Shown here in pieces: positions 32,257 to 34,845 of a stretch of 64,000 nucleotides of DNA. Each line of letters starts with the position of its first letter. Positions within the stretch are counted from its first letter, which is position 1. The position numbers and the translations under genes are program-made. The notes under the pieces were generated by a model. The model did no database searches. It saw nothing but the letters and a program-made list of their open reading frames with translations, and was not told where the DNA came from. The stretch is from positions 620,001 through 684,000 of the forward strand of contig NZ_PVZV01000001.1 in the NCBI RefSeq assembly GCF_002995495.1, given 5' to 3'. The stretch comes from Actinocorallia populi (GTDB lineage Bacteria > Actinomycetota > Actinomycetes > Streptosporangiales > Streptosporangiaceae).

Positions 32257-32423
32257 GGTTTCACGTGAAACCGAGGCGGCCGAACAATCCGGTGCGCGGA
32301 GCCCGCGAGATCCACCACACGACCGCTCCCCTCGGCTTTCTGCGGCTCCGTCCAGGCCAAGCGATCCGATGTGTGGAGTCCGCTCAGGATCATTCCGTAA
32401 ATGATCTTTGGTTCCGCGCGAGG
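32257..32423. repeat. parS: parS and two degenerate copies in roughly 76-bp units
   Basis: GGTTTCACGTGAAACC (32257-32272) is a perfect 16-bp palindrome and the best parS in the window. GGCTTTCTGCGGCTCC (32334-32349) and a poor match starting near 32409 follow at 77- and 75-base steps. The first two are each followed by a similar flank (GGCCGAACAATCCGGTGCGC and GGCCAAGCGATCCGATGTGT), so the whole unit appears duplicated and is decaying. Confidence 0.75.
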
Positions 32424-32429
32424 TGCCCG

Positions 32430-32752
32430 ATCGTTGTCGGCTGTCGGGCAGGGTGGCCGATGACGATGATGGGTCGATGTCGGCTTGGTGGTCGGTGAAG
32501 TACCTGTAGCTCTTCGACTGCGCGGTGGCGGCGTGGTCGCGGGTGGGCGCCCGGATGCTGTCCCCGATGAGCATGGTGTCCTTGGCGAACCGCTTGCGGG
32601 GCCGGAGTGCGAGCATCGGTCCGAGGTGAGTCGGTGATGGGGTCGGCTGCGAACTTCGAGACGCCGGACAGCGGAGCGAGCCGGCGCATCGTCAAGTTCG
32701 TCCGCCGGTGAGCCGTCACCAGCAGCACTCGGTCCTCGAACGGCAGGCCCAT
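32430..32752 (-). pseudogene. decayed IS5-type transposase
   Basis: On the minus strand, one frame from 32752 reads RVLLVTAHRRTNLTMRRLAP, then LSGVSKFAAD. It shifts near 32617 to another frame reading LALRPRKRFAKDTMLIGDSI, then RAPTRDHAATAQSKSYRYFT. Together these match the N-terminal half of the common actinomycete IS5/DDE_Tnp_4 transposase. The usual VDGT around the first catalytic Asp has become GDSI. The C-terminal half is missing beyond about 32430. It is a relic with at least one frameshift and a truncation, lying inside the parS-rich zone. Confidence 0.75.
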
Positions 32753-32961
32753 GGCCGGCCCTTGCGGACTGCGTTCGTACTCTCACCACACCGCAGCAGG
32801 CTCAGCGGCTTGTCGATAGGCGGGGGCTCAGCCCGGTGAAAGGGCGATTCAGGACTGCCCTGACGCCGTGATCACACCAGTCACTCTGGATCATCTCGCT
32901 TGCAGACGTCACCGGTTTTGACCGATCCTTGCTGTATTCGACGGCCAAGAGGGAGACCGAC

Positions 32962-33339
32962 GTGGGGCTGATTCTGTTCCCGGGAGACGGAGACACCAGC
33001 AGTCCCGATATCGCCTGGTCTTACAGCGGCTTCGATGCGTTCCGGCAGGAGCTGGCACGAGCTGAGGGGTTCAGTCTCTCCGAGATGCGAGGCCTCGGCG
33101 GAGATCACCCCTGGAGTGATGTCTCCACCTTGCTCGAACCGCTCCTCGATCGCCCAGATGACGGCGGAGGCGAACTCTCGCCCAGCGAGTGCGCCGCGAT
33201 CCTGCCTCGTCTGGAGGCGATCGCCGATCAGTGGCGGACCGAGGTCGACGTCCCCCGAACGCACATCAATGCGGCCCAGCAACTGATGGTCGTTCTTCGG
33301 TTCTGTGTCTCGAAGGACGTCGAGCTTCTCTTCCTTTGA
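32962..33339 (+). CDS. small acidic protein of unknown function
   Basis: A 125-residue protein from GTG at 32962, with GGGAG six bases upstream. An in-frame ATG at 32929 lacks such a site. Features are ILFPGDGDTSSPDIAWSYSG, FDAFRQELARAEGFSLSEM, PWSDVSTLLEPLLDRPDDGG and ELSPSECAAILPRLEAIADQ. The codon pattern looks coding, but GC is a little lower than in neighbouring core genes. Similar proteins, from memory, occur as hypothetical singletons in actinomycetes. No motif for function is visible. It is the only apparently intact gene in the 2.6 kb between parB and the ddl-like gene, next to an IS relic, so it may be imported. Confidence 0.62.
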   Translation: MGLILFPGDGDTSSPDIAWSYSGFDAFRQELARAEGFSLSEMRGLGGDHPWSDVSTLLEPLLDRPDDGGGELSPSECAAILPRLEAIADQWRTEVDVPRTHINAAQQLMVVLRFCVSKDVELLFL

Positions 33340-34845
33340 TATCCACGAAGCCGGGCCGTTCCTCACGCTTCCACGGTTACGGATCAGCCCTTAGTTCTGC
33401 CGCGTGACGCGCCCCTGACGGTTTCCGTGGACAGTGCATGGAGCCACGAAGCCCGCTGCACGGCTGCCCCTGTCGGCTCCCTGGAACCGCGCCTCGGCCA
33501 AACGATCCGATGCGTGGAGCCCACGAGATCCATCACACGGCCACCCTCTGCCGGTTTCCTGTGAAACCGTTCAGGCCCAGCCGATTCGGTGAGTGGCGCC
33601 CATGAGCTCTGCCGCATGACCACCTTCCGAGATGCCAGGGGAATTCTGCCGTCCGAAGCAGCCGCAACCTCCTGAACCCGTGGGCGCGCCGTCATCTCGA
33701 ACGGATGCGAGCGACGCCAAGGCGATGCCACCTCACGGAACCACTGCAGAACGGTTTCACGTGGAACCGAGCAGAGCCGAACATCTCCTACGGCTACTTC
33801 CTGGAAGAGAGGCCACCGAGAGCGCGGCTCCTCCCTGCATCAGATACTCGGAGGCGGTGATGCGATGTCGACGGCTGCCGTCCTCAGAACGACCAGGAGG
33901 GGGTTTCACGTGGAACCAAAAAGCAAGCTTGCCCAGCAGGCATATCTCCGAGCCGGAGCCGGAGCCGGAAGTGACTCCCTGGCGTTCGGCTGGGGAGAGG
34001 CTGGCGATAGGGGCGCTGCTCCTGGGAGCCGCCACTGGAGAGGTTTCCCGTGGAACCGCGAGGTAGGGCTGATCGATGGGGCATTGGGGGCTGGAGCTGG
34101 ATCGAGGGCAGGGCGTGGGCGCGGATTGATGCGCTGGCGGTCTGCCGGGCAGAGATCTGTGATGACGAGTAGTGCCGTCTTCTGGGCCGACAGCCCGAGC
34201 GCTTCCTGTGGAATTGAGATGGGTCGGACGTTCCTCGGACACGTCGCGGAACAAAAACTAGAGAACGTGAGACCCTGCCGCGCCTCCGGCCACGGTGACA
34301 GGGATACGTGAAGCCGGGCGTTCCTGCTCCTGGAGTCGGCTGTTGAGGCAGCTTCACAGGGAACCGAAACCGAGGACAGGGGGGTCATGTCGGCGAACCG
34401 GCGAACCGGCGAACCGGCGAACCGGCGAACCGGCGAACCGGCGAACCGGCGAACCGGCGGGCAGACCGGCAGTGCCGCCTTTGGGATTGGTCTCCGGTGG
34501 GGTTCGTGTGGAACTGAGGGTGGGCCGGTCTGTGGATGCAGCGGAGGCCGAAGCCGGGCTGGTGCTGGAGTGAGATGCGGAGGGGTCGCCAAGCGGCAAG
34601 GCGGGTCGGCTGGCGGGGGGTTTCACGTGGAACCGAGAGGCCGGACTGATCCGTGGGCGTCCAGGAGGGCCAGAGGCGGACTGGGGGCCGGGCCGCCGTG
34701 TCGGCTGCCTGGGAAGAAGGAAGGGCGGAACGGATGGAGGTGGAGGACGGTTGTCGGTGGTTTCACGTGGAACAGCGACTCGAAGGCGGGGTGCCTTCGA
34801 GCCGCTGTTCGCGTGGAAGAGGGGGGGTGCTGTTCGTGGGGCGGG
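33340..34845. repeat. parS: 1.5-kb non-coding parS array
   Basis: No convincing gene is visible. ParB-site-like dyads start at 33420, 33475, 33553, 33754, 33902, 34042, 34200, 34350, 34500, 34619 and 34759, with another weak one near 34806. The best are GGTTTCACGTGGAACC (33754, 33902, 34619) and GGTTTCACGTGGAACA (34759), one base from the perfect palindrome core. Others (33553, 34042) have changes at the centre, and 34200, 34350 and 34500 are poor. From 33754 on, steps are 148, 140, 158, 150, 150, 119 and 140 bases. Many sites share a right flank resembling GAG-N-GGCCG-N-AC-N-ATCCG. Confidence 0.75.
34392..34458. repeat. tandem octamer repeat GGCGAACC, about 8 copies
   Basis: The 8-bp unit GGCGAACC repeats without interruption about 8.4 times between two parS-like sites (34350 and 34500). 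The unit length is not a multiple of three, so it is not a coding repeat. This type of array changes length by slippage. Confidence 0.95.

What the first reader, a model, noticed from the sequence alone, without database searches (positions are those of the whole stretch)
32257..34820. Dense parS array in the gene-poor zone after parB, with quasi-regular spacing
About 14 ParB-site-like dyads lie in 2.6 kb, ranging from perfect (GGTTTCACGTGAAACC at 32257) through a recurrent one-base variant (GGTTTCACGTGGAACC at 33754, 33902, 34619; 34759 similar) to strongly decayed copies. From 33754 the steps are 148, 140, 158, 150, 150, 119 and 140 bases. ParB-parS systems are known to use several sites near oriC. 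A regular, graded-quality array packed into non-coding DNA suggests either a designed high-density ParB loading platform or a once-amplified array losing function.
Basis: partly seen in the sequence, partly recalled or inferred. Interest (0 to 1): 0.72.

Follow-up and report, generated by a model that had tools for sequence, protein, structure and literature searches.

The report
Amplified chromosomal centromere (parS) cluster
Next to its chromosome-segregation genes, this actinobacterium carries a compact cluster of likely docking sites for the segregation protein ParB that appears to have grown by local copying, with some copies kept intact and others worn out.

Summary
The array is real. 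The 2.67-kb parB-ddl gap holds 7 parS-like sites with at most 2 mismatches (0.002 expected); 80 related loci have at most 5 in such a stretch. Of 15 such places in the 8.25-Mb genome, 9 lie in the window. Five sites from 33754 fit a 144-bp lattice (P about 0.002, chosen post hoc), with weak sites near its three empty slots. Other weak dyads are near chance level.

The 'one-base variant' is not decay: GTTTCACGTGGAAC occurs, read on either strand, in 19 of 80 related loci and matches a B. subtilis consensus whose arrays recruit ParB.

Best reading: oriC-proximal parS sites, multiplied locally, then diverged. Left units are homologous in their flanks. Right units share one base, orientation and spacing but only weak flank similarity. 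Five right cores stay within one base of the presumed founder and three are relics: pruning, not wholesale loss.

Two congeners carry more, mostly perfect sites in the same zone. Three of 92 loci show recent parS duplication. Binding is untested. New variant of a known kind.

The parts
24470..24798 (.). DnaA-box cluster between dnaN and dnaA, probable oriC
   Evidence: 10 TTGTCCACA-like boxes at up to 1 mismatch; dnaN 23118-24248(-) and dnaA 24850-26643(-) by Pfam
30130..31176 (+). parA (start codon uncertain)
   Evidence: Pfam AAA_31 5e-61
30274..30287 (.). parS-like site near the 5' end of the parA ORF, GATTCACGTGAAAC
   Evidence: 1 mismatch; identical 14-mer at the corresponding place in G001 and G002; 59 of 80 related loci have a site 1750-2000 bp upstream of the parB match end
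31214..32173 (+). parB
   Evidence: Pfam ParB_N, HTH_ParB, ParB_C; alignment with 8 relatives
32257..32272 (.). perfect parS GGTTTCACGTGAAACC
   Evidence: perfect sites lie at +90 and +84 from the parB match end in G001 and G002
32335..32348 (+). dead parS unit; its flanks are homologous to the unit at 33554
   Evidence: left-flank alignment to the 33554 unit beats 500 of 500 shuffles (correct register; searches used a register 2 bases off)
32929..33339 (+). 136-aa ORF of unknown function lying between the two left unit pairs
   Evidence: homologues in 6 of 149 other family genomes at E up to 1e-5; no Pfam or NCBIfam match at E up to 0.001
33476..33489 (+). dead parS unit; its right flank is homologous to that of the unit at 32258
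   Evidence: beats 500 of 500 shuffles; 64-nt repeat at 78%
33554..33567 (+). weakened parS GTTTCCTGTGAAAC
   Evidence: 2 mismatches
33754..33767 (+). variant parS GTTTCACGTGGAAC, lattice slot 0
33903..33916 (+). variant parS GTTTCACGTGGAAC, lattice slot 1
34043..34056 (+). parS GTTTCCCGTGGAAC, two substitutions each recurrent in relatives, slot 2
34201..34214 (+). relic GCTTCCTGTGGAAT near slot 3
   Evidence: 5 mismatches; positional test
34351..34364 (+). relic GCTTCACAGGGAAC near slot 4
   Evidence: 4 mismatches; positional test
34391..34459 (+). 8.6 copies of the 8-bp repeat CGGCGAAC within the array
34501..34514 (+). relic GGTTCGTGTGGAAC near slot 5
   Evidence: 4 mismatches; positional test
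34620..34633 (+). variant parS GTTTCACGTGGAAC, slot 6
34760..34773 (+). variant parS GTTTCACGTGGAAC, slot 7
34846..35847 (-). D-alanine-D-alanine ligase gene (ddl), right border of the array
   Evidence: Pfam Dala_Dala_lig_C, NCBIfam NF002378 above its cut-off

Best explanation
It is the oriC-proximal parS (bacterial centromere) cluster of a chromosomal ParABS system. ParB, made from the gene next door, would load as CTP clamps at the intact sites and slide out to form the segregation complex that ParA moves and SMC joins. The cluster was enlarged in this lineage by local duplication of parS-bearing segments: about 78-bp units, one pair of them duplicated, on the left, and units on a roughly 144-bp lattice on the right. 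The spacers then drifted. Selection kept a subset of cores (32258; 33754, 33903, 34620, 34760; probably 34043; perhaps 33554) while the others became relics. Shown by sequence: the sites, their excess, left-unit homology, intact ParB, the oriC setting, and richer site sets in congeners. Suggested by sequence: the lattice. Inferred: ParB loading, origin of the right units from one founder, and selection on cores.
For: Site excess and confinement. Seven sites (up to 2 mismatches) in 2672 bp, against a maximum of 5 in 80 related parB loci; congeners reach 11 and 13. Lattice of the strong right sites and weak hits near the empty slots. Founder signature: 8 of 8 right sites carry G at position 11 in the same orientation, and 6 of 7 gap sites have G..C as outer pair, against 12 of 212 perfect sites in 80 related loci (Fisher P 9e-7, which treats sites as independent) and 1 of 23 and 0 of 16 in the G001 and G002 stretches. 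Left flanks: 8 of 12 comparisons beat all of 500 shuffles. Right flanks: 8 of 56 comparisons in the top 5% where 2.8 are expected, 1 beating all 500. The segment 32272-33752 occurs nowhere else in the genome. Five of 8 right cores lie within one base of GTTTCACGTGGAAC although spacers are barely alike. Congeners: between parB and the aminotransferase gene after ddl, G001 has 21 sites at up to 2 mismatches, 18 of them perfect; G002 has 13, 12 of them perfect, some in a roughly 70-bp tandem array; the window's gap DNA does not align with either. Recent tandem parS copies in G014 (187 bp x 4) and G011 (29 bp x 4). ParB keeps 6 of the 8 DNA-contacting residues named for Caulobacter ParB, including R173 and G201; the other two (Q to H, K to R) are the same in all 9 aligned sequences, window included. 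The variant core is used in B. subtilis arrays that recruit ParB-GFP.
Against: Flank homology among the right units is weak: none of 56 right-right comparisons beat all 200 shuffles, 1 of 56 beat all 500, and aggregate identity equals that of shuffles. That aggregate test did not flag the left units either (0.760 and 0.717 against shuffle maxima 0.794 and 0.746, register of one unit 2 bases off), so it has little power in both directions. The lattice test used five sites chosen after looking; 32258 and 33554 do not fit it, and the 30-base tolerance for the empty slots was also set after seeing the sites (they lie 15, 21 and 27 bases off). One 150-bp step contains a 69-bp microsatellite. No binding data. 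One parS site is enough for wild-type-like growth in C. glutamicum (PMC7083940). G001 and G002 are closer to each other than to the window's genome, so whether the window array is a remnant of a larger ancestral one or a separate, smaller expansion is open.
Confidence: 0.78

Rival explanations
1. A once larger array now losing function as a whole: only the perfect site at 32258 (and the parA site) works and the rest is drifting.
For: Congeners have more and mostly perfect sites; relics and dead units exist; the ddl-aminotransferase gap of the window has no site at up to 4 mismatches, while G001 has 11 and G002 has 10 at up to 2 mismatches there.
Against: Four cores are identical in one recurrent variant although spacers are barely alike; free drift would not be expected to spare them. 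The variant occurs in 19 of 80 related loci.
Confidence: 0.13
2. Spacing of about 144 bp is itself selected as a loading-platform geometry (for instance clamp spacing or DNA wrapping).
For: Lattice fit of five right sites, P about 0.002, post hoc.
Against: Other natural arrays have other periods: 29, about 70 and 187 bp; the window's left units are about 78 bp apart; only G000, G002 and G111 of 297 family genomes show a triple of period 135-165.
Confidence: 0.04
3. The right-hand sites arose independently as point mutations in non-coding DNA under selection for more parS, without duplication.
For: Right flanks show only weak homology; parS cores are short.
Against: Shared G at position 11 in 8 of 8, same orientation, shared G..C outer pair, lattice positions, a small excess of similar right flanks (8 of 56 against 2.8 expected), and clear flank homology on the left.
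Confidence: 0.14

Closest known systems
Chromosomal parS clusters of Streptomyces
   Same: Many parS sites beside oriC and parAB in actinobacteria; mean 22.8 per chromosome, range 11-65 in 20 closed genomes (PMC8743542, passages); ChIP-seq shows ParB at 16-17 sites in S. venezuelae (PMC12511625, passages).
   Different: There the mean distance between sites in the origin island is 5602 bp; here neighbouring units lie about 78-150 bp apart and show traces of duplication.
Corynebacterium glutamicum parS1-10
   Same: Ten oriC-region 16-bp sites, nine of them intergenic; degenerate sites with at least 3 mismatches did not recruit ParB (PMC7083940, passages).
   Different: Ten sites over 35 kb; no tandem arrangement mentioned in the passages seen.
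F plasmid sopC centromere
   Same: Clustered, regularly spaced binding sites of a ParB-family protein (SopB) acting as a centromere; 43-bp repeats, ten functional copies (PMC7205306, passages).
   Different: Plasmid system with its own site; the window has the chromosomal parS sequence, diverged spacers and relics.
Engineered parS16 arrays in B. subtilis
   Same: Sixteen tandem copies of TGTTCCACGTGAAACA, whose core is the reverse complement of the window variant, add ParB-GFP foci (PMC7614844, passages).
   Different: Man-made and placed in the chromosome arms; the window array is natural.

Membership tests
Chromosomal ParABS parS cluster | 16-bp palindrome of the TGTTNCACGTGAAACA type | tested here: met
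   14-bp core: 1 perfect copy and 4 copies of a variant allowed by the degenerate consensus on the other strand; the outermost pair of the 16-mer is mostly G..C rather than T..A, but in 80 related loci it is T..A for only 52 of 212 perfect sites
Chromosomal ParABS parS cluster | Sites concentrated near oriC and parAB | tested here: met
   9 of 15 places in the genome lie in the window; DnaA boxes at 24.5-24.8 kb, dnaA, dnaN, parA and parB beside it
Chromosomal ParABS parS cluster | Cognate ParB with intact CTP-binding motifs and DNA-contact residues | tested here: met
   GERRWR and ENLHR motifs present (that these are CTP motifs is recalled); 6 of 8 contact residues identical, R173 and G201 equivalents R181 and G209 kept; residue mapping done by hand from the alignment
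Chromosomal ParABS parS cluster | ParB binding and CTP-dependent loading at the sites | not testable with these tools
   needs ChIP-seq or biochemistry
sopC-like iterated plasmid centromere | Near-identical tandem repeat units | tested here: not met
   right flanks barely more alike than shuffles; left units about 78% identical over 64 nt
Dispersed repeat or mobile element family | Copies of the unit elsewhere in the genome | tested here: not met
   segment 32272-33752 found only at its own place; the right part was not searched this way

The most novel reading that the evidence does not exclude
In this actinobacterial family the chromosomal centromere evolves by birth and death like a satellite: parS-bearing segments of varying length (29, about 70, about 78, about 144, 187 bp) are repeatedly amplified beside parB, spacers are lost to drift, and selection prunes the cores down to a working set, so that even congeners do not share arrays.
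Probability: 0.4. Interest if true: 0.6.

Novelty: new variant of a known kind. Interest (0 to 1): 0.4.

Why it matters
One parS site can be enough in tested bacteria (C. glutamicum), yet actinobacteria such as Streptomyces keep many. Natural arrays at different stages (fresh 187-bp and 29-bp tandem copies, mostly perfect sets in two congeners, a pruned set here) make it possible to ask which copies ParB uses, what multiplicity adds, and how a bacterial centromere grows and shrinks.

Tried and rejected
Dispersed repeat family: rejected, the segment 32272-33752 is single-locus. RNA feature: Rfam at gathering thresholds gives two tRNAs in the window, none in the array. Altered ParB specificity: I suspected a G-to-A change at window residue 204, just before a DNA-contact loop. 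It is not among the named contact residues and varies in relatives (G 74, S 3, N 1, R 1, K 1 of 80 motif matches among 91 loci given), so I dropped it. The far site at 769231: its neighbourhood is found in G001 and G002 only from query base 729 on, while the site is at about base 633, so it is not shown to be shared. Same-register flank identity of at least 0.7 as a sign of recent duplication: 9 of 142 adjacent pairs, in 3 of 92 loci (G002, G014, G011); the window is not among the 3. Literature: searches listed no paper whose title or abstract start describes natural tandem amplification of chromosomal parS; I read passages of seven papers only, the library lacks most subscription papers, and one cited survey of parS distribution is not held.

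Full report
What is there. The window is an actinobacterial replication-origin region: gyrA, gyrB, dnaN and dnaA on the minus strand, a cluster of 10 DnaA-like boxes at 24470-24798, then yidD, yidC, rsmG, parA and parB on the plus strand. After parB (31214-32173) comes a 2.67-kb gap up to the ddl-type ligase gene (34846-35847, minus strand). By ParB the best-scoring named records include Thermomonospora echinospora (74%) and Actinomadura sp. WMMA1423 (71%); records very near the window's genome may be left out of that list. The genus was not identified, and a genus search found two further genomes of it (G001, G002).

Is it more than chance. In the gap 7 sites lie within 2 mismatches of GTTTCACGTGAAAC, where shuffles give 0.002; the excess holds to 5 mismatches (13 against 3.9) and is gone at 6. 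In the whole genome (8.25 Mb) 15 places match with up to 2 mismatches, 9 of them in the window, one of them perfect. Among 80 related parB loci the densest 2672-bp stretch after parB holds 0 to 5 such sites (5 in 2 loci; some loci are cut short); the window has 7 and the congeners G001 and G002 reach 11 and 13.

The lattice. The five good sites of the right part (33754, 33903, 34043, 34620, 34760) fit a period of 144 bp with a root-mean-square error of 1.8% of a period; random placement does as well in 0.2% of trials. The three empty slots each have a weak dyad within 30 bases, which shuffles reach in 0.15%. The choice of sites and of the 30-base tolerance was made after looking, 32258 and 33554 are off the lattice, and one step (34351-34501) contains a 69-bp run of an 8-bp repeat, so I would not lean on exact spacing.

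How it arose. On the left, units at 32258, 32335, 33476 and 33554 share flanks: 8 of 12 flank comparisons beat all of 500 shuffles (earlier runs). The pair 32258/32335 matches the pair 33476/33554 best, so a two-unit block was probably duplicated; a stretch with a sporadic 136-aa ORF now lies between. On the right, flank homology is weak: 1 of 56 comparisons beat all 500 shuffles and 8 of 56 fall in the top 5%, where 2.8 are expected; none of 56 beat all 200; aggregate identity equals shuffles (0.688 against 0.686 and 0.672 against 0.687), though that aggregate test also failed to flag the left units. Duplication on the right is therefore inferred, from a shared base (G at position 11 in 8 of 8), one orientation, the lattice, and a shared outer pair G..C (6 of 7 gap sites at up to 2 mismatches) that is uncommon in relatives (12 of 212 perfect sites). 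The segment 32272-33752 is not dispersed in the genome.

Decay or function. Across 80 related parB loci there are 212 perfect sites and 72 with one mismatch, 70 of these of four kinds: GTTTCACGGGAAAC 31, GTTCCACGTGAAAC 24 (19 loci), GTTTCACATGAAAC 11, GATTCACGTGAAAC 4, each counted with its reverse complement. The window variant is the second of these read on the other strand. It also fits the degenerate consensus TGTTNCACGTGAAACA (PMC7022226, passages) and the core of the B. subtilis consensus whose 16-copy arrays add ParB-GFP foci (PMC7614844, passages). The extra change in 34043 (C at position 6) is at a base pair that ParB's G201 cannot read specifically (PMC7383237, passages). The window ParB keeps the equivalents of R173 and G201 and 6 of 8 named contact residues; the two others are the same in all 9 aligned sequences. 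In C. glutamicum, degenerate sites with at least three mismatches do not recruit ParB (PMC7083940, passages), so 34201, 34351 and 34501 (4-5 mismatches) are probably relics. That 5 of 8 right cores stay within a base of their presumed founder while the spacers are barely alike argues for selection on those cores; this is inference.

Relatives. G001 and G002 have 26 and 19 sites at up to one mismatch, the window's genome 7; among 200 family genomes only G001, G002 and G042 (18) exceed 11. Between parB and the aminotransferase gene after ddl, G001 has 21 sites at up to 2 mismatches (10 before ddl, 11 after; 18 perfect) and G002 13 (3 and 10; 12 perfect), part of them a roughly 70-bp tandem array. 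The genes around align at about 77-88% of nucleotides (one block further right at 66%) but the gap DNA of the window gave no alignment with either. Protein identities put G001 and G002 together with the window outside, so polarity, shrinkage here or growth there, stays open. Fresh tandem parS copies occur in G014 (187 bp x 4) and G011 (29 bp x 4) after parB. Dense triples are rare: period 59-89 in 8 of 297 family genomes and in 2 of 296 drawn from the class (one of the 2 is a family genome also among the 8), period 135-165 in 3 of 297.

How it most likely works. Intact sites load ParB clamps near oriC; ParB spreads, ParA moves the complex and SMC is recruited. This rests on established knowledge of ParABS (for Streptomyces, PMC12511625, passages) and not on data from this organism. 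Extra copies would add loading capacity or robustness; the C. glutamicum authors propose robustness for their ten sites. Relics would be silent.

Verdict. Observation confirmed; interpretation partly supported. A known kind of system (a parS cluster) with an unusual history: local amplification and pruning. Interest 0.4.

Noticed in passing
window 32929-33339 (+): 136-aa ORF of unknown family inside the array zone; homologues at 38-66% identity in 6 of 149 other family genomes (two of them partial matches), so perhaps a horizontally moving gene.
   Followed up: partly
window 34391-34459: 8.6 copies of the 8-bp unit CGGCGAAC at 100% matches, a likely slippage-prone microsatellite between two relic sites.
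   Followed up: no
window 35874-36500: Another set of diverged direct repeats (115 nt at 84%; 41-nt units, two steps of 59) upstream of ddl, without parS sites at up to 4 mismatches, in the gap where both congeners carry many parS sites.
   Followed up: no
L092 (G014) 10215-10789: Four parS sites exactly 187 bp apart with 95-100% identical 40-bp flanks, directly after parB: a fresh tandem amplification.
   Followed up: partly
L098 (G011) 9308-9408: Four parS sites exactly 29 bp apart, about 1 kb after parB.
   Followed up: partly
L084 (G000:C16:5582-6271): A second ParB-like protein in the same genome, 36% identical over query residues 50-266; not examined.
   Followed up: no
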